A model generated the notes under the pieces. The model did not search any database. It was not told the DNA's origin and saw nothing but the letters and a program-made list of their open reading frames with translations. A DNA stretch of 64,000 nucleotides, taken from positions 352,728 through 416,727 of the forward strand of contig NW_020654748.1 in the NCBI RefSeq assembly GCF_003589595.1, in the 5' to 3' direction. A program made the position numbers and the translations under genes. Shown here one piece after another: positions 11,097 through 36,100 of the stretch (positions within the stretch are counted from its first letter, which is position 1; every line of letters starts with the position of its first letter). This stretch comes from Hyposmocoma kahamanoa (lineage: Eukaryota > Arthropoda > Insecta > Lepidoptera > Cosmopterigidae).

Positions 11097-11999
11097 GTTA
11101 TTCAAATTCAAATTCAAATTATTTATTTTCTCAGATAACAAGATCCATTGGTGTTAGTAAAAAAAAAAAAAAAAGAAACAAACTTATAGACTATTGTTAG
11201 TATGAAATTATAATTATAAATTACTTAGAAACTAAAATGTCATGTACTTACGAGGCATCTCGTGCGGAATCATTGTCCGTACGAGATGCCTCAGTACAGG
11301 CGCTCTGTGGTCGTTTGCAACAACTCTCAGAATGCTGTTGCCACTACCCCGGAGCCTACTAACCAAAGATGCTACCTTTCTCCGCAAGACCGCATTAAAG
11401 CAGCTTGTATGGGATAGAGCAAACATTGCAGAGGCACTGCAGTACCGGGGTAGTCCCAACATCATCCTGAACACGTTGTTGTACTTGTACTGGACTCGAA
11501 GGGAATTCAGCGACCTTTGCGAACAGCTAAACCACAAGCCGCCCGTGTACAGACCCTGACAATACGCTTTAAAAAGCGTAATTTTTACTTGGTCCGTACA
11601 GCGGGCAAACCTGCGGGCCAGCATATTTCCGCGGACCGCCAAAGCCCTGCGTTCCCTCTCGACGTCGTCATCATCTTTAAGGTCGTCGGCAAGTATATGT
11701 CCAAGGTGTTTAAAATGAGACACCTGTTTTACACTCATGCCATTTAGCGAAATAGCTGGAATGACTCTGGACACCTACCGGCGGCCTTGAAGACCATGAA
11801 CTCGCTTTTTTTAACATTATAAATTAGTCCGTGTGATGCGGCATATACCTCACAGACTGCCAACATCTCCCTAATAGACTTCGCAGTCGGGCCCAGCAGC
11901 ACCATGTCGTCTGCATAGCTGATGTTATTCACACAAACATCCCCCACACAACAGCCGACACGCATGCTACTGTTATCATCAAAGAAAAAGTTTTCCAAA
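11097..11999 (-). pseudogene. CR1-like non-LTR retrotransposon, reverse transcriptase end, frameshifted
   Basis: Two overlapping minus-strand frames together give the end of a LINE reverse transcriptase. The first (11998 down to 11744) holds the catalytic YADD box in VNNISYADDMVLLGPTAKS followed by KSEFMVFKA. The second (11774 down to 11232, 180 codons) continues FKHLGHILADDLKDDDDVER, then RCTDQVKITLFKAYCQ and QYKYNNVFRMMLGLPRYCSA. The change of frame near 11760 and the missing N-terminal part mark it as dead. The LGHILADDLKDDDD and VFRMMLGLPR wording is typical of moth CR1/Daphne-like elements. The TTCAAATTCAAATTC run at about 11100-11120 is a likely 3' tail. A similar but distinct relic is at 22187-23960. 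Confidence 0.82.
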
Positions 12000-24576: not shown

Positions 24577-25533
24577 CAGTGTTGGGCAAAATTTAATTGT
24601 TCTGGTTTTTTAATTAAAGATTGACAATTGATTAATTGTCAATTGCGAAACAGCAATTAACGATTGATCAATTGTTAGTTGCGAGAACCGCAATTAACAA
24701 TTAATTAATTTTCAATCTTTTCAATGTTTTTGATTAACAATTAACAATTAAAACTGACAATTATGATAAATTTATAGGGCATATGGGGGTGAGTTAGGGC
24801 GTTGGTTGTGGGGGCCTGTTGGGGGCCTGCTGGGGGCAGGGTTGGGGGGCCCGGTTGGGGCCCCGGTTGGGGACCCGCTTGTGGGCCCCGGTTGGGGCCC
24901 CGGTTGGGGCCCCCGGTTGGGTGGCCCGGTTGCGGGGCCCGGTTAGGGGCCAGTTATGGGGCCTGATGGATCCGGGGCCCCCAAACCGTGGCCCACAACT
25001 GGGCCCCAAACGGGGGCCCCCAACCGGGGGCCCCCAACCGGGCCCCACAAACGGGCCCCCAACGCGGTCCTACAAACGGGTCACCCAACCGGGCCCCCAA
25101 CCGGGCCACCCAAGCGGGCCCCCCAACCGGGCCCCCAAACGTGGGCCCCAACCGGTTCCCTAACCGGAGCCCCAACCGGGGCCCTAACCGGGGGCCCCAA
25201 CAGGGCCCCCAACAGGGCCCCCAACCGGGCCTCCAACCGGGGCCCCCAACCGGGCCCCCCAACCGGGCCCCCCAACCGGGCCCCCAACTGGGGCCCCCAA
25301 TCGGGCCCCAAAACCGGCCCCCAACCGGGGACCCCAACCGGGGACCCCAACCGGGGCCCCCAAGCGGGATTCCCAACCGGGGCCCCCAACCGGCCGGAAT
25401 TGATTTTAATTGCAAATTTAATTGCAATTAAAATCAATTCAATTGAAATCAATTGCAATTGATTTCAATTGAATTGATTTTTTAATCTGATTGAATTATT
25501 GATTGAAATTTAATTGATTAACGCCTAACACTG
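24577..25533. mobile_element. 957-bp hAT-like MITE with GC-rich minisatellite core
   Basis: Ends CAGTGTTGGGCAAAATTTAA and, read inward, CAGTGTTAGGCGTTAATCAA are of the CAGTG type usual for hAT elements. Perfect 8-bp duplications GTCGCGGG flank it (24569-24576, 25534-25541), and the SINE it interrupted resumes exactly after the duplication. Outer parts (24610-24780 and 25395-25520) are made of CAATTGATTAATTG-type palindromic AT repeats. The centre is a GC-rich minisatellite, described separately. No transposase remains. Confidence 0.9.
24785..25393. repeat. GC-rich minisatellite, GGTTGGGGGCCC units, strand-switching at about 24970
   Basis: Imperfect units of roughly 12-17 bases. From 24785 to about 24970 they read GGTTGGGGCCCC on the + strand; from about 24975 to 25393 they read CCCCAACCGGGG, the reverse complement. 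The whole block is therefore a large inverted repeat around GGATCC at 24968. Runs of four or five G's are frequent. The long open frames through it on both strands (repeated G, P, R, W, N) are products of the repeat and not genes. Confidence 0.9.
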
Positions 25534-26900: not shown

Positions 26901-27119
26901 AGTCGATTGAGCTGATTTTTTACGGTTTTTAAAAAAATTCTCGAATAACTCGAGAAATCGGGTAAGAGAATTCTCGAAACTCAAGAAAAAAACATCAGAC
27001 ACCCTAACTCGTAAATAATGGCATTGTATAAAATTCAACATTTACATATAAAATTTATTTATAAATAATAAAGGCTACTCCATTATACCTGTATTCAAAT
27101 ACTTTTCACTAGAAGGGGA

Positions 27120-27410
27120 ATTCCCTACAAATTGGCAACGCTGGATACAAGTCGTAATTCGCGCTCGGGCTGGTCATGGCCGGCATTTGTTTGTTGACAA
27201 ATAAATAAACATTGTGAAGTAATTCCGTGTTGTGAAATGATAAAAACAATTGAAATGAGCGCGTAAACTACTGTACTTCAATGTAGTGTATGTGTATTGT
27301 GCCGTTTATCAATGGAATACAGTGAAATCATTGTGTGAAATGTGGTTGGCGTGAAAAAATAACCTCAATGTTGTAATGAAAATTGTATTTCTACCATCAT
27401 AAGTTAGGTA
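27120..27410 (+). promoter_or_regulatory. Possible cryptic promoter and 5' exon
   Basis: AATTGGCAACGCTGG and a GC-richer stretch (GGGCTGGTCATGGCCGG) precede TTGTTTGTTGACAAATAAAT and a region ending AAGTTAG before GTATGTC, a possible donor at about 27409. GGCAACGCTG-type sequence is often seen near insect transcription starts. No ATG-led frame of length. It would suit an internal promoter of unc-5 or none at all; weak evidence. Confidence 0.2.
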
Positions 27411-29315
27411 TGTCATTAAAATATTCCTTATATTTAAATGATAGTAAATGTATCCACCTTTCTAGTCATATTATAACACATTCCATACAATTATGCAGAA
27501 TAACGTTTTTTTTTTGCGACAAATTGGATTATTTCCAATTGTTTTTTTGACCAAGTGTTTTGAAAAGTGTTTTAATGCATAAAGCGCTCATTATTTGGTA
27601 ACAGCTTATAAGGGTTTTGTAATACTGTCAAAAGAAACAATCGCTTAGAAACATCGCGTTTTGTAGACAATCATAAAAATCTCATAGGAGGAATATTCTT
27701 CGACAAGTTCAACTACACTAAAGCAAGTAAAAATAATCTTTTCGTATTCTAAAGTTTTTCTATAGATCAAGCTATAGACAAAATGTTCCCAACTGTGTTT
27801 TGAAAAAAGCTTTAAATTCTTATCGCCATTTTTATTTTCAAAGAATGACTATGAAGTAGCCGAGAAAAATTTCTTTTCTTTTTAAAAAGTAAATCTAAGT
27901 TGAAAAAGCCTAGAACTTCTTGGAAATGGTTTGTTTTGTGAGTTATTTTGTATATTTAAGCTTTCTATAAATATTTAAAACCGAAAATCGATAACTGTAT
28001 TTTTATTAAGTTTATATTTTATACTTAAATATTTAAAATTTAGCGAGCGCATTACTTTTATGACAGGTTTTACATCACTTTTCACAATGTATTTAAAGTC
28101 GCACGTTAATTTGCGCTTTCCAACCGATTAAACATTGCGCGAAAAAGTCAGAAATATTATATCTAATTTCGCCATGTTGCAATTTATACCTATAGTTTAT
28201 ATTTTGTAAGCCATTAAACATGAAGTCTATTAGTATTAAGAGAATTGCGTCCTATGTTTGTAACGCTTTAGTATTTTGGTTTTAAAATAGCATTACTAAG
28301 AAAACTATCATAGACTATAAATTATCTAAAAACTATCTACAAGACTAAATAAAAACTTTCTACATTCTACAAATGGTCTTGTAGCATTCTAGAAGGGTTA
28401 CTTCAGAAAAAAGATAAGAATGACTCTTAACACTACCTACAGATAGTTTCTCAAAGCACTCTTGTGATCTACTAATAAAGTTGTGCCCACTTTTACTTTA
28501 AATTATCTAGAAACCTTCTTTGAGATATCTTGAGGGAATTTGAACTCTTAAAATATTCAATCGAATTAAATTCTATTAGATGTCTTATAGTATATGGGTA
28601 ATTCTTATTCTTACGTAAAAAAGTGTCTTCTCTGAGAATTTCTTAATCTAAGGCATGAAAGGTTTATTTGTTTTTTGTTAAGATATGTTGTTGACCGAAT
28701 CTATGTAATAGCAATCGCAGCTACTCCTGAAATATTCAGGTTTCAGAGTTATAAAATAAAACATGTGCTAAAAGTCCGCGCCATGCCGTGTCCGTACTCC
28801 AAAATTTAATATTATTGTTTTTTTATAAAATAAACTGCCATATTAATTGTTATAAATATACTTTGAGGATCAAGCTGAACGTTATAGCTATGTATTTACA
28901 AAACAATATAATTTTATCTTCAAGTTTTCTATACTTAATAAAAATCCAAACTTTGTCTTCGATTTTTTTGTCCGAACCGAGGTCTTAAATAAAAAATCGT
29001 CCAAGGTAGTAGGAAATTACGAAATTCAGCTGGTATCATTTTATTTGTTTTTTTGAACCGGCAACACTATAATCGGTTAGTTTTTTAAATGGCCTCAGTT
29101 GTTGAGGACGAAGTAAAGTTTTTTCCAAAATAATTATTTCAAAAAGGAAAAGCATAACCTGTCCGCATCGTGTTCGACATACCGAAGGTAATATTATTGT
29201 TAAAATTATAATTATTGCATTATGGATTATCTTAAACTACGTATATTCTATAAAAAGGACCATATTTACTTAATCTTTAACAGTTGTTAGGTTATACCCG
29301 GCACGGCATGAAAAT

Positions 29316-29387
29316 GTCCGAACCAAGGCATTCCAAACCATGGCATTTTGAGAACTTGGTTCGGACATATAAGTGCATGGTTTGGAC
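29316..29387. repeat. Left cluster of the GTCCRAACC motif, two direct and two inverted
   Basis: GTCCGAACCAAGGC at 29316 and TTCCAAACCATGGC at 29331 read on the + strand. The same motif reads on the - strand at 29353-29366 and 29374-29387, these two being 21 bases apart. Single weaker copies lie further left at 28774 and 28970. The cluster sits about 230 bases before the transposase ATG, so it could be promoter-proximal as well as subterminal. Confidence 0.75.
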
Positions 29388-29620
29388 ACACTCCTCGAGT
29401 TATTAATAACTACTCAAAGAAATTAATATATCATTTTTAAATATTATTTTTCCTATTCTGTTTTACAATATTAGCTTAATAAACACTTCACTGCATTTTA
29501 ACAATGTATTAGCATACAGCTTTTGTATTGCCACAGTTTTCCAGCAACTAATGTCATCAGACCTTAGAAGGCTAGAGCATGCAGCCTACTAACTTAAGTT
29601 TTATGATTTTATTGGTTTAG

Positions 29621-32194
29621 ATGCCACCGAAGAAGGACCACCCTGACGAAAAGAAAAAAGCAAAAGTAGAAAGAGAACGAAGGAGAAGAGCTAAAATAAA
29701 AGCAGATCCTGTAAAATATGCAGAATATTTAAGAAAAGAAAAAGAACGTCGTCAGAAAAGAAAAGCTGAGAAGAAGATTTTACTAATAGGAGATCTCACA
29801 CCGCGTCATCAAAGAGCAAAGCGTAAAGAGTGGCGTGATTATGCTAAGATAAGGAGAGCAAAAAAGAAGACAGCTGAACGTGCTTTTAGACCTTTCAGGG
29901 AAAATACCCCTTCCACCGATTCTGACATAGATCCTGTGCGAGATAGAAGCCCTTCACCATCTATATTTCGTGAAGACATTCCATTGTCAAGATGTAGCAG
30001 TCCTTTAACCCCGGCAAATAATGTTCGACTGCAGAATCTAATCAGAAAACGTGTGTCTACACCAAATCTCGTATCCAAAACCAAATCTCCATCAAGAACA
30101 TTTGAAACCCCATGTACGGGTTCTCCTTCATCTGTGGGTAGTTCAGTTGATTCTGCTTTAAGCAGACAAAAGCTGGAAGGGCTAAAACGTGTTAAGGAGA
30201 GCAGAGATCTTGCGCGGTTTGCAATCCATAAACAAGGCAAAATAATAAAAAATCAGAGAAATGAGATAAACAGATTAAAAAAAAAAATACAGAGATTAAT
30301 AAAAACTCACCAAATTGTACCTACGACAACACAAAAAAAACAAAAACTCCACAAAGAAAATTGGCATAAACGCAAGAATTCTATAGAGAAGTTTTTGGAG
30401 GATGAAGAAAACTCCATGATCAGCCCGGGGCTCAAAGATACTGTTACACGAAAGAAGATTAAGAAGCAAAAGAGGTTTCTTTGCGACTCTCTGGAGAATT
30501 TACACAAAAAATATAATGCGCAAGTACCGCAAAGCTACCGCGTAAGTTATGCATCATTCTGCCGCCTTCGTCCGTTCTGGATCCTGCGAGCAAAATTGTC
30601 AGATCGCGACACGTGCATGTGTGTTTTACATGAAAATTTTAAAATGATTTTGGAAAGACTGAGATCATTGAATATTTTACGAAGTGGAATAGACGTTATC
30701 GAAAATGTAGTGTGTGACGTTAATTCTTACGCATGCATGAGTCGAAAATGTGAACAATGTAGTCGCAAATCGCCTCTAATCGGAACATTTGAAAACGATG
30801 AAATATCGTATCATCAATGGATTAACAAAAACGAGGAGCGTAATATAAAAGGACACAATAAAACAATAAGAAGAACTGTTAAAGCTAGACTTATAGCGAC
30901 GAAGAAGGATCTTGTTGAAAAATTTCTCGATTATCTACCAAAGTTTTTGCTACACAAGTTTAATATTAGCAACCAGCACAAAACCCTGAATCACATTAAA
31001 GAACATTTGAAAGAAGGGGAAGTCTTAATTCACATCGACTTCTCAGAAAACTTCTCCTGTAAATATTTTACAGAAGCACAATCGGTGCATTTTGGAGCGT
31101 CCCGTCAACAAGTTTCTATTCACTCAGGTGTGCTTTATTATCTATCAGAGACCACTGGAAAAACTGAACCAATTTCGTTTTGTTCAGTTTCACCATGCCT
31201 TCGCCATGACGCAGCAGCGGTATTCGCGCACTTGAAGAAAGCTCTATTACATATAAATAGAGATAAAAACATCAAAGTTTTACATGTTGCCAGTGATGGT
31301 CCGAGTAGTCAGTATAAAAACAAAACTAACTTTTACCTTTTTACTCAACATCTGGTTAACATCTTACACGTTTCTAAGTGTACTTGGAATTTTTCGGAAT
31401 CCTCTCACGGCAAGGGTCCTGCAGATGGAGTTGGAGCTGCCGTCAAAGGAACCGCTAATAATCATGTGCTTAAAGGAAACGACATCCCAGACTACGAGAC
31501 ATTTGTCCAAGTAATCAAAGAACAATCCAATGTTCTCACCCTTGAAGTAAGTGAAGATGAGATCAAAGAAGGAGATCGTCTGCTGAAGAGTTCTGGGCCA
31601 ATAAAGAACTTACATGGAATAAAAAAAATGCATCAGTTGACATGGACTCGGGAACAACCAAAAATGATAAATATGAGGGAATTGACTTGCATCGATTGTG
31701 GCATTACAGATGATTGTTCACACTTCTCTACTTCAAGGAAGCAAGAGATAGCACAATTTTCCAGCGTTTTTCATTCAGGATCCAGCCATAAGCAAATGGA
31801 GGCTAATAATGAACCTGTTGAATTAGGTTTTGTTACATATGAACAAGATATTGGCACTAGTAATAAAACTAGTACACTAAGTTCAAAAACACTGCGAGAA
31901 GGAGTATGGGTGCTGGCAAAGTTTTTAAGTAGCAAAAAACAGAATGTTCTATATGTAGGACAGATAATAGCGGTACATGATGATGGAGACGAACCGTTAT
32001 ACGCAAAATTTACAAGAAAAAGGTATCACAATGTTATAAATGGAACCACTGTGTTCATATGGAAAGAACCTGATGACTTCTGTGCTCTTAATGCAGACAA
32101 CATTATTCGCGTTTTACCAGAACCCACACCCAGCAGACGGGGTGAACTTATATTCGATTTGGATTTCTCTGGCTTAGAATATCCTGTTATGTAA
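29621..32194 (+). CDS. DDE-type DNA transposase, 857 aa, intact
   Basis: A single uninterrupted reading frame inside the largest unc-5 intron. Residues 1-95 are strongly basic and include DPVKYAEYLRKEKERRQKRK at 29-48, a pattern common at the start of insect and cnidarian transposases. Residues about 181-232 look like a basic coiled coil. Cysteine clusters follow: C332, C334, H337, then C365, C372, C377, C380. A probable catalytic triad is D473 (HIDFSENF), D559 (ASDGPSSQYKN) and E593 (FSESSHGKGPADG), with spacings that fit an RNase-H-fold DDE transposase. A second cluster, C690, C693, C699, H701, precedes a C-terminal domain (about 763-857, GVWVLAKF...YVGQIIA) that looks like a small beta-barrel. 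The ATG at 29621 is the first in frame; an upstream exon is possible because tttag precedes it. The superfamily is uncertain: the 4-bp duplication would fit Sola-type elements, but I cannot verify this. Confidence 0.85.
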   Translation: MPPKKDHPDEKKKAKVERERRRRAKIKADPVKYAEYLRKEKERRQKRKAEKKILLIGDLTPRHQRAKRKEWRDYAKIRRAKKKTAERAFRPFRENTPSTDSDIDPVRDRSPSPSIFREDIPLSRCSSPLTPANNVRLQNLIRKRVSTPNLVSKTKSPSRTFETPCTGSPSSVGSSVDSALSRQKLEGLKRVKESRDLARFAIHKQGKIIKNQRNEINRLKKKIQRLIKTHQIVPTTTQKKQKLHKENWHKRKNSIEKFLEDEENSMISPGLKDTVTRKKIKKQKRFLCDSLENLHKKYNAQVPQSYRVSYASFCRLRPFWILRAKLSDRDTCMCVLHENFKMILERLRSLNILRSGIDVIENVVCDVNSYACMSRKCEQCSRKSPLIGTFENDEISYHQWINKNEERNIKGHNKTIRRTVKARLIATKKDLVEKFLDYLPKFLLHKFNISNQHKTLNHIKEHLKEGEVLIHIDFSENFSCKYFTEAQSVHFGASRQQVSIHSGVLYYLSETTGKTEPISFCSVSPCLRHDAAAVFAHLKKALLHINRDKNIKVLHVASDGPSSQYKNKTNFYLFTQHLVNILHVSKCTWNFSESSHGKGPADGVGAAVKGTANNHVLKGNDIPDYETFVQVIKEQSNVLTLEVSEDEIKEGDRLLKSSGPIKNLHGIKKMHQLTWTREQPKMINMRELTCIDCGITDDCSHFSTSRKQEIAQFSSVFHSGSSHKQMEANNEPVELGFVTYEQDIGTSNKTSTLSSKTLREGVWVLAKFLSSKKQNVLYVGQIIAVHDDGDEPLYAKFTRKRYHNVINGTTVFIWKEPDDFCALNADNIIRVLPEPTPSRRGELIFDLDFSGLEYPVM

Positions 32195-32425
32195 TTATAA
32201 CAGATTATTTGGCGATATTTGATTTGGCAAAGTTCATATTATTTGGAAATTTGATTCTGACAATTTATGTTAAAGAAAGTATTCATTTGTGAAATCGACA
32301 AGACTTAAATATTGATTAAAAAGACTTCTAATTTTAAGTAAGTAATAATATTATGTTAGTCCGAATCCAAAGAAACTCATAATTAATACTAGTATAAGTA
32401 AAATTTATTATTTAAAATTTAATAG

Positions 32426-32431
32426 AATAAA
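32426..32431 (+). promoter_or_regulatory. Candidate polyadenylation signal of the transposase
   Basis: AATAAA lies 232 bases after the transposase stop codon, with further AATAAA-like sequences within the next 35 bases. The whole region is AT-rich, so the hexamer alone is weak evidence. Confidence 0.35.
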
Positions 32432-32852
32432 CTATCATAAAACAAAAAATCATAAATAAATAAAATACAAGTATTTCATTTGATTTTACACATAAATCAA
32501 ATTAAATATATATATTTATTTTTTATGAATATTTTGTGTTATGGTAGTTTATACATTTAGTGTGTCAGAAGTTAAGATATACATAATTATATTCATATTA
32601 CAATTTAATAATTGTATAACAAGTCAGTTTTTATATTTGCTATTTTAAAAAATTAAGCTGTTTTTTAATGAAGAAGTAATAGTTAATTTGTTATCATATA
32701 TTTTAAAGGTAAAGTCAAATATATTTTATTATGATTGTTAATTATATTTTTAGAGTCATAAATAAACACAAGATTATCAGTATAAAATTTTTTTATTTGG
32801 TAGGTCGAAGAGAATAGTTTTTTTTAAACAAGCTATATTTTATTATAAAAAT

Positions 32853-32971
32853 GTCGCAACCGTGTCATGTGATATCCGAACCATGCCGATAATAGTCCAA
32901 ACCGTGACATGAGTTATCTAAACCATGCCTCTACTAGTCCAAACCATGCCACCAAATGTCCAAACCGTACA
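32853..32971 (+). repeat. Six GTCCAAACCRTGCC-like motifs at exact 21-bp spacing
   Basis: The motif starts at 32853, 32874, 32895, 32916, 32937 and 32958, each exactly 21 bases apart. Core sequences include ATCCGAACCATGCC, GTCCAAACCGTGAC, ATCTAAACCATGCC and GTCCAAACCATGCC; the first and last copies are more diverged. Spacers between motifs are not conserved. The array lies about 160 bp inside the right end of the transposon. Probable role (inference): binding sites for the transposase or a host factor on one face of the helix. Confidence 0.85.
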
Positions 32972-33134
32972 ATTTCACCCCTTTTTCACCCCCTTCCAGG
33001 GATCATTAAGCTCGACAACATACTTTAAAAAAAACTTTGTTGAATAGTCTATCAAAAAGCATTCAAAAATTACAAAAATAAATAAAAAAATTGAAAAAAT
33101 ATTTTTTAAACTCTATTTAAGAACTACCCATATA

Positions 33135-36100
33135 TTTAGATATGGGTGTGCTGCTTGGGCTGGGGACGTACTTCTAACCATTATCTTCACGACAGTAGCC
33201 ACATCCTTGGCAGAGAATCTTACAGTCAGCTCCGTGGCAGTTTCCCTAGTATCGACCTCCTGTAGCTCTCGGTACATGGACGAGGACACCGGCAACGAGG
33301 AAATTCTTTAACTCAAGCTTGACTTACAACGTAACTTTATTTCTACACCAAAAAAGTTTTCTGCAATGCCATCTGTTAGCTTAACACATTTGGTGAGTTA
33401 AGTCCCTGCCAGATATACCTAAATTTGCAAAATGGCAGCGCCAAATGAAGGTATTTGCCTAACGTCCAGGAGCGGGAATTTGCCACACGAAGGGTTAAGG
33501 TTTAAATTCAACTTTATACTGCTTACGATAAGAACGGTCCAAAGCCCAAAATGTCAAATGCCCTTTTTATGTCTTTGCCAATTTTTTTTTCTAAATAATT
33601 TTTTAACAATTAAGAAAAAATGAGTAATTTCTTCAACTCAGAAATCTAATTTCATATAGTTCAAAAACAATGCTATGCAATTATATGTTTACCTTCCTGG
33701 ACTTTATTGTGTCAGCCACTCCCTTGTGCAACCAATTTTATAACTCGATCCAATCTCCTACAAATCAACAATGGACTAAGCAAGAACTAATAACTAAACC
33801 CATTTTATCGTTGGGTTTCATGTGCTCATAAACATTTACGTCTTTGGATTTATCATTTACATTCATTTGAGCTAATATAACATTTACGTGTAATAAGTCT
33901 ATAGTATCCTGTGTTGTATGGTAGTTCCATAATAAGTTGGTAGTATTCACATTTCTTGCGTAAATCCCGCCTCTAATTGGCACTGGTGTCATAAAATGTA
34001 TTGAATTGATGGCCTCAATTACAAATGTGATTCTATGTTTAGTTCAATATAAGTCTGTTAGATTGATGTACTGTTTACGCTGAGTATATGCAGGCTCCAG
34101 TAACTGTTTTAACACATTGAGATATTCAATGCGCATAAATTACAAATTTGTTATGAACACTCTTAGATTTTTCTTAGTAGCTTTTTTTTAGCTTTTGTTA
34201 CTGTTCAGTTGATTTCATTGAAATAAGCCTTTTACAATGTACTTTTGGTTACAATGTTGTAAAGCGCATTACTTTCATGCAATTTGTAACTCTCATAATT
34301 AATAAATACGTAAATAAAAGGTTTAACAATGAGATCGATACTTTCTCTGTATATCTCTATATACCCAAAGCACTTTGGGCTAGTCCTTTTCGAAAAGTTT
34401 AGCAACAATGTTGTACATAATAATGACTGTCTATCATCACAGTTTTTGGTAAGTAAAAATAATCTTAATTATAACTCAAATATAGGAATTGAGATTTTTC
34501 ACTACATTGGCTAAAGTGATATAAATCTTGATAGTATAAGTGAAATGTAATGCCAGGATTATCATAAACGTATGAACCAAAGAGAAAATTGTAGCATACA
34601 CAAATGTTTTGGCACCTGTGTACTATGTACTTTTAAATTTATAATTTCTGACATACTTTCGGAATTGTTGCAAAAACATGATTTCTGGAAGCTTCTAGAA
34701 GTTTAAAGTACGTTTATTTGATAACTGAGAATTAGAATTTTTGTATAAGTTTTAGTAATCTTTGTACACGATATGCACATTTTAATAGTGAGGCACAATC
34801 TTGCATTATCTTTTCATCGTACATTAACTTTAAGCCGTATATCAAAGTAATCTCTAGAATCAATATAGGTACCGAAAAAGACTATAGCGTAAAACGTAGC
34901 AATATCCTTTCGAAATTCAGCTGTTACCGTCTGCATCTCTTTTTTCTGCCATAATTGCATCGAATCATAAAAATGGGATCCGGGTGCTAAAGAGGAATGG
35001 GAAGTACAAAGAAAATATAGTTACAGTTTATTAGGACACGTAAAAGTATAAAATGTGCACGAGATCAAAACAATGACAAATAAAAAAGCACGAAGCTTCA
35101 ATCTCAAACTAAAGTGATAAAAAAGACTATATAAAACACAGAAAGATTTATAGCAACTGCTGCTGTTCACTACAATATGAAGGGTGTTCCATTCTTGTAT
35201 AAAAACGCACTTGATTTTTTTTTTTTAATTTGTTTTTGTAAATAACTTCTCATCTGGTACTTACTACATACACCATTTCCTTATATTTTATTTTCGACAT
35301 GAACTTAGGTCCTTAAATTTCTTCTTCCATTACACCTCACAATAACGTTGGTGCTTAGGTGCAAATTGGGCAATTACGTGTTATAAAGAATAAGTTGTGG
35401 GCGTTCGCAACAATGGTATTTATATCTTGTAATTGTAACAATAGCTTGCTTTAATGTTCTTTAGTGACGACATGAGTGGGTGTTTTGTCATTGTGCTCTG
35501 CTGCGTTTTCTGAGGTACTTTTTTGAATTGTTGTGTTTTTGACATTGGTTTCTGTAACCATATTTGGAATGTCTTTGAATACAAACCATGAATTTAATAT
35601 AACTTAGGAACAGGAATAGTGCCCTGGAGAAGCCTTGTTTAGTATCAGTTTTGAAAGTACTTTAGAGAAACCAAGGCAAGCATGACAAGTTATAAATTTA
35701 TCGCACTTTTGAACTCCCAATGTAGAATTTCCTCATACTATTTCTCAGTTATAGGATGTGTGTTAAAGCTTTGATGTAACACCAGTTTATTATGTTTCTC
35801 TTGATCCGCAATACAGTAGGCATCGCGACTATAATTAAATATCATCTTCAAAGCGCTTTTCTCCTGCCTACAGCACACTATATATATTGAAAATAGTAAG
35901 TAATTCTCTACACTTTAAAACTATTTTGCATACGGACCAATATCATTAAATTATTTAAATATCGCATCATAAATAATATCGCCGTCGCGTGTGGTCCGAT
36001 TTTTTATTTATATGGATATGTTTTTTTTTTAATTCATACAAGATTCTAATTTTGTTATTTATTTACTGGCTAATCCAATTATTAATTTGACTTAATTTCA

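What the first reader, a model, noticed from the sequence alone, without database searches (positions are those of the whole stretch)
28595..33130. Apparently intact DNA transposon with an 857-aa DDE transposase of uncertain superfamily
The sequence shows one uninterrupted frame, an Asp-Asp-Glu set with spacing 85 and 33 residues (D473, D559, E593), two cysteine/histidine clusters, near-identical 13-bp ends and a TATA duplication. Complete, uninterrupted eukaryotic transposases are rare in a window otherwise full of dead elements. The FSESSHGKGPADG motif around the Glu is distinctive. A Sola-type affiliation is only a guess from the 4-bp duplication.
Basis: partly seen in the sequence, partly recalled or inferred. 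Interest (0 to 1): 0.85.

Follow-up and report, generated by a model that had tools for sequence, protein, structure and literature searches.

The report
Intact Sola-like DNA transposon
This is a complete 4.5-kb jumping gene, recently copied within what looks like a moth genome; it most likely belongs to the known Sola kind, and its enzyme may carry an unusual chromatin-reading domain at its end.

Summary
The element is real, intact and recently mobile, but three details of the finding are wrong. True borders: 28596-33129 (4534 bp), 12-bp ends with one mismatch, flanked by ATAT. Two further copies lie elsewhere in the genome: one identical, one flanked by TAAT. Twelve of 12 fetched copies of the surrounding repeat show the empty site with a single ATAT, so insertion duplicated exactly 4 bp. 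The 857-aa protein reaches no Pfam cut-off but has many animal relatives. Its predicted core is an integrase-like RNase H fold. The third catalytic acid is almost certainly D602 (110/110 and 61/61 aligned rows), not E593 (93/110 and 6/61): a DDD enzyme. Over 12 insertions of this and related elements, 10 have exact 4-bp, AT-rich duplications and 9 have GGG...CCC ends. These features fit published descriptions of Sola, Sola-2 in particular; no named Sola sequence was available, so membership is likely, not proved. Long open frames are common here (27 places), not rare. Most novel point: residues 752-834 are predicted to form a Tudor/chromo-barrel-like domain shared by many relatives, hinting at chromatin-guided insertion; its sequence support is weak.

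The parts
28596..33129 (+). Whole transposon, 4534 bp
   Evidence: Copy 2 (L002) has no internal difference; copy 3 (L003/L006) differs inside by one extra A; flanks differ at the three places
28592..28595 (.). Left target-site duplication ATAT
   Evidence: Empty site with a single ATAT in 12 of 12 fetched repeat copies
33130..33133 (.). Right target-site duplication ATAT
   Evidence: As for the left one
28596..28607 (+). Left terminal inverted repeat GGGTAATTCTTA
   Evidence: 11 of 12 positions match the other end
33118..33129 (-). Right terminal inverted repeat, GGGTAGTTCTTA on the - strand
29621..32194 (+). Transposase ORF, 857 aa
   Evidence: relatives
29648..29905 (+). Basic N-terminal helices (aa 10-95), presumed DNA binding
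   Evidence: Predicted structure; the function is inferred
30614..30760 (+). Putative zinc-binding cluster, C332 C334 H337 C365 C372 C377 C380
   Evidence: Each position 98-109 of 110 in A2 and 60-61 of 61 in A6; zinc binding is inferred
31019..31525 (+). RNase H-like catalytic core (aa 467-635)
31037..31039 (+). D473, first catalytic Asp
   Evidence: 110/110 and 61/61
31295..31297 (+). D559, second catalytic Asp
   Evidence: 107/110 and 61/61
31424..31426 (+). D602, third catalytic Asp, inside the helix after strand 5
   Evidence: 110/110 and 61/61; helix 599-617
31397..31399 (+).
   Evidence: 93/110 and 6/61; in the loop before the helix
31874..32122 (+). Predicted C-terminal Tudor/chromo-barrel-like domain (aa 752-834)
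32853..32972 (+). Six subterminal copies of a GTCCRAACCRTGSCA-like motif at exact 21-bp spacing
28774..29387 (.). Five scattered copies of the same motif in the 5' noncoding part, four on + and one on -

Best explanation
It is an autonomous cut-and-paste DNA transposon, most likely of the Sola-2 kind. Its single protein is a DDD transposase: a basic helical N-terminus and a zinc-binding cluster presumably bind the ends (12-bp repeats and the subterminal 21-bp-spaced motif), the RNase H core (D473-D559-D602) presumably cuts and joins, and staggered insertion into AT-rich target gives a 4-bp duplication. A C-terminal barrel may hold the complex to chromatin or DNA. Shown: insertion with a 4-bp duplication, several copies, intact frame. 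Predicted: fold and active site. Inferred: excision, end binding, chromatin contact.
For: Three copies at different places, two of them identical over 4534 bp. Empty site in 12 of 12 fetched repeat copies. Duplications ATAT, ATAT, TAAT here, and 4-bp AT-rich ones in 7 of 9 insertions of related elements. Invariant D473 and D602, near-invariant D559. Integrase-like core. Published features, seen as passages: Sola with DDD transposase, 4-bp duplications, ends of 11-1124 bp, mostly 2-9 kb (PMC10741241); Sola2 with an 888-aa transposase, 12-13-bp ends in one host and 21-bp imperfect ends in another, AT-rich 4-bp duplications (PMC3627910).
Against: No comparison with a named Sola sequence was possible. 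PMC3627910 gives AWWT for one Sola2 host; TAAT, GTAT, AAGT, TTTT and TAAA here do not fit it. Two of 12 insertions (L004, L011) show no duplication, and 3 of 12 lack full GGG...CCC ends. No excision footprint was seen or sought. No Foldseek match reached E 0.001. A one-pattern scan of prokaryote contigs found no relative, although Sola is described as reaching bacteria.
Confidence: 0.75

Rival explanations
1. It is a DDD/E DNA transposon of a lineage outside Sola: an unnamed superfamily, or one recalled to make 3-4-bp duplications such as Academ or Chapaev.
For: No Pfam family reaches its cut-off for this protein. Placement rests on structural features, not on similarity to a named member. The window's group sits on a long branch (1.34, support 1.000) from the divergent group.
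Against: DDD, 12-bp ends and AT-rich 4-bp duplication together are what is published for Sola and Sola-2.
Confidence: 0.22
2. It is a domesticated host gene that happens to be flanked by short repeats.
For: The frame is intact and the protein is conserved.
Against: Near-identical copies sit in unrelated flanks with target duplications, and the window copy lies inside another repeat whose 12 fetched copies lack it.
Confidence: 0.01
3. The third catalytic residue is E593, as the reader proposed (DDE).
For: E in 93 of 110 rows of A2.
Against: In A6 the 55 rows from the divergent search have Ala (54) or Gly (1) there, while D602 is 61/61. E593 lies in the loop before the helix that in integrases carries the third acid (recalled); D602 lies in that helix.
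Confidence: 0.04

Closest known systems
Sola-2 transposons (Sola2 of Dictyostelium fasciculatum and Polysphondylium pallidum, PMC3627910, passages)
   Same: Transposase of similar size (888 vs 857 aa), 12-13-bp ends (first host), 4-bp AT-rich duplications
   Different: No Fanzor gene here; some duplications outside AWWT; sequence similarity not tested
Retroviral integrases (solved structures)
   Same: RNase H-type core with three acids; first acid in strand 1, second after strand 4, third in the following helix (integrase positions recalled); an SH3-like C-terminal domain (recalled)
   Different: Third acid is Asp, not Glu; different zinc cluster; 7-14% identity in the listed alignments; a DNA transposon without reverse transcriptase
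Ectocarpus Gypsy-10 with C-terminal Tudor domain (PMC12477816, passages)
   Same: A possible Tudor-like domain at the C-terminus of the integrating enzyme
   Different: LTR retrotransposon of a brown alga; a DNA transposase here

Membership tests
Sola superfamily | DDD catalytic triad | tested here: met
   D473/D559/D602 in 110/107/110 of 110 and 61/61/61 of 61 rows; Sola as DDD from PMC10741241. By alignment and predicted fold, not by assay
Sola superfamily | 4-bp target-site duplication | tested here: met
   Empty site; 10 of 12 insertions examined
Sola superfamily | Terminal inverted repeats of 11-1124 bp, mostly 2-9 kb long | tested here: met
   12 bp; 4534 bp
Sola superfamily | Sequence similarity to named Sola transposases | not testable with these tools
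   No named Sola sequence available; the 2009 and 2011 papers, asked for by recalled DOIs, are not held
Sola-2 | AT-rich 4-bp duplication (AWWT in one host; ATAT, AAAT, ATTT in another, PMC3627910) | tested here: met
   38 of 40 duplication letters are A/T in 10 insertions; the AWWT pattern itself holds in 5 of 10
Sola-2 | Short inverted repeats (12-13 bp, or 21 bp imperfect) | tested here: met
   12 bp here; in relatives 12 bp (L013), 16 bp (L019) and 27 bp (L008) of unbroken match
Tc1/mariner | 2-bp TA duplication | tested here: not met
   Copy 3 is flanked by TAAT; the empty site shows 4 bp
piggyBac / Kolobok | TTAA duplication (recalled) | tested here: not met
   ATAT, ATAT, TAAT
Academ / Chapaev | Transposase sequence of those superfamilies | not testable with these tools
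   No reference sequences to hand; no Pfam match above cut-off
Tudor / chromo-barrel domain | Small beta-barrel fold of the domain | tested here: met
Tudor / chromo-barrel domain | Significant sequence match and methyl-lysine cage | tested here: inconclusive
   PHF19/PHF20 Tudor chains are 5 of the 11 PDB sequence hits but at E 0.14-0.48. Pfam: Tudor_4 for 2 of 25 segments (0.017), BRWD_AD for 1 (0.00058), none for the window's own segment. Aromatic columns 763, 768, 778, 812, 814 are conserved; no cage was modelled

The most novel reading that the evidence does not exclude
A whole animal lineage of DNA transposases carries a conserved Tudor-like methyl-lysine reader at its C-terminus that steers insertion to marked chromatin: cut-and-paste transposons with their own histone reader, which none of the passages and listings seen here describes.
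Probability: 0.3. Interest if true: 0.65.

Novelty: new member of a known kind. Interest (0 to 1): 0.4.

Why it matters
It is a complete element with an identical second copy and a demonstrated empty site, so it is a good candidate for a working transposon of a kind for which no biochemistry is recalled. The conserved D602 corrects where to look for the active site. If the C-terminal barrel reads histone marks, chromatin-guided site choice by a DNA transposon becomes directly testable.

Tried and rejected
Whole-protein searches gave nothing above cut-off or significant: Pfam, PDB by sequence and by profile, Foldseek. Over the 57 rows of A1, Pfam hits below E 1 were scattered, one row each; only Peptidase_C48 in one row was strong, and DUF7869 in one row (0.0072) was not followed up. 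A one-pattern scan of prokaryote contigs (27 stretches, none a relative) and a two-pattern scan of viral contigs (63 stretches, none a relative) found nothing. Peptide motifs in papers: none; 'Cc8L18.2', a name given to relative P0253: none. Alignment A4 for the C-terminal piece aligned it wrongly and was dropped; A5 replaced it. Short non-autonomous derivatives: both 200-bp ends hit only the same three places. In the fold lists retroviral integrases, Mos1 and Argonaute-like chains lead; families not listed are not excluded.

Rows dropped before counts: A2 uses the window and 109 of the 120 proteins listed (left out: the near-identical P0001, the internally duplicated P0002, and P0082, P0083, P0085, P0090, P0105, P0107, P0109, P0112, P0115). 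A6 uses the window, 5 of its nearer relatives and 55 of the 120 listed. A7 uses 25 segments picked by eye from 40 printed of 85 kept of 91; near repeats and several that looked unaligned or low in complexity were left out, which favours a clean barrel profile.

Novelty searches: 'transposase/chromo barrel/Tudor/Sola', 'DNA transposon/transposase/Tudor domain/chromatin reader', 'cut-and-paste/transposase/chromodomain/Tudor/DNA transposons'. For this question only listings were seen, plus passages of PMC12477816.

Full report
Observation. The frame is real: 29621-32194, 857 aa; 20 mononucleotide shuffles of the window gave at most 163 stop-free codons. D473, D559 and E593 lie where stated.

Borders. 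The genome search (57 match rows, 53 of 182 candidates scored, 728-Mb assembly) found a copy with an identical protein on another contig (L002) and a third copy 15.7 Mb away on the window's own contig (L003/L006). Copy 2 has no internal difference from the window copy; copy 3 differs inside by one extra A in an A-run near 31620, which breaks its frame unless it is an assembly error. The flanks differ. Copies 1 and 2 are flanked by ATAT and copy 3 by TAAT, each next to GGG...CCC. In copies 1 and 2 the palindromic flanks leave the border open by a base; copy 3 decides it: the element runs 28596-33129 with 12-bp ends, not 13-bp ends and TATA. Both 200-bp ends find only these three places, so no short derivatives were seen.

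Empty site. The window copy sits in a high-copy repeat. A query of its joined flanks with one ATAT gave 40 matches (40 of 754 candidates scored); one is the window's own right flank and the other 39 run across the junction. The 12 best became loci, and 12 of 12 read ...CTTATAGT-ATAT-ATTTAGATATGGG... without interruption. They match the window over 1.0-1.65 kb left of the element, within 26948-28595, at 93.8-99.6% identity. The insertion therefore added 4534 bp plus 4 bp. For copy 2 the joined query found its own two flanks, overlapping by 4 bp, and only partial matches elsewhere, so no empty site; the query for copy 3 did not complete.

Related elements. For nine further insertions in the same genome both ends were in hand: L004, L005, L008, L009, L011, L013, L014, L019, L020. 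Seven have exact 4-bp duplications: GTAT (L005), AAGT (L008), TTTT (L009, in a T-run), ATAT (L013), TAAA (L014), ATAT (L019), AAAT (L020); L004 and L011 have none. Ends are GGG...CCC in six of these nine; L004 and L005 begin GGA, and L011 ends CACC. With copies 1-3, 10 of 12 insertions show the duplication, 38 of its 40 letters are A or T, and 9 of 12 have full GGG...CCC ends. Ends of the other match rows were not examined. Of the 57 rows, 27 distinct places hold frames of 697-1068 aa without a stop inside the match, so long open relatives are common; copy 3, cut short, is one of them.

Protein family. No Pfam family reaches its cut-off (best 0.033). Sequence searches, each scoring about 8000 candidates, found 121, 90 (overlapping) and 685 (queried with six divergent relatives) proteins at E <= 0.001. 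Where a source names them they include moths, beetles, bugs, spiders, molluscs, fish, a rotifer and a sponge; the closest named are moths, from which the host order is inferred. In A2 (110 rows) D473, D559, D602 and E593 are conserved in 110, 107, 110 and 93; in A6 (61 rows) in 61, 61, 61 and 6, the 55 rows having Ala (54) or Gly (1) at 593. The third acid is thus D602, with 42 residues between it and D559. A Cys/His cluster at 332-380 is nearly invariant; C699 of a second cluster is kept in A2 (100 of 110) but gapped in 54 of 61 rows of A6.

Subterminal motif. A motif like GTCCRAACCRTGSCA has 15 matches in the window at up to 3 mismatches (expected 3.9; 0 of 100 shuffles reached 15); 11 lie in the element's noncoding parts, six of them at exact 21-bp steps at 32853-32972. 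The motif was drawn from the element, so the excess is partly built in. Binding by the transposase is inferred.

Comparison. Passages of PMC10741241 describe Sola as DDD, with 4-bp duplications and ends of 11-1124 bp; passages of PMC3627910 describe Sola2 with an 888-aa transposase, 12-13-bp ends in one host and 21-bp ends in another, and AT-rich 4-bp duplications. This element meets these points. Similarity to a named Sola protein could not be tested. Moth Sola sequences in baculovirus populations are tabulated in PMC4735498 (table passage), and Sola families of a moth appear in PMC8634313 (passages), so Sola in moths is known. PMC12477816 (passages) calls its Tudor-bearing Gypsy, to its authors' knowledge, the first reported transposable element with a Tudor domain.

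Verdict. A known kind of mobile element by its features, well preserved and recently mobile, with a corrected active site and border, and one untested but interesting domain.

Noticed in passing
window 26948-28595 and 33130-33159: The element is nested near one end of a high-copy repeat (at least 1.6 kb, copies up to 99.6% identical) whose shared part ends at ...GGGTGTGCTGCTTGGG; its kind was not determined.
   Followed up: partly
window 24804-25393: GC-rich tandem arrays of 12-13-bp units (GGTTGGGGGCCC, then GGGCCCCCAACC) that give long stop-free frames on both strands.
   Followed up: no
window 11232-11774, - strand: A 180-aa stop-to-stop frame that resembles the C-terminal part of a non-LTR retrotransposon protein (recalled, not searched).
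   Followed up: no
protein P0119 (relative): A divergent relative of the transposase carries an Ulp1-type (Peptidase_C48) domain at 757-870, E 7.7e-17.
   Followed up: no
protein P0131 (relative): A relative labelled as from a Wolbachia metagenome-assembled genome; insect DNA in that assembly is a likely reason, not tested.
   Followed up: no
L003/L006 (copy 3): One extra A in an A-run is the only internal difference from the window copy; it could be a real frameshift or an assembly error.
   Followed up: no
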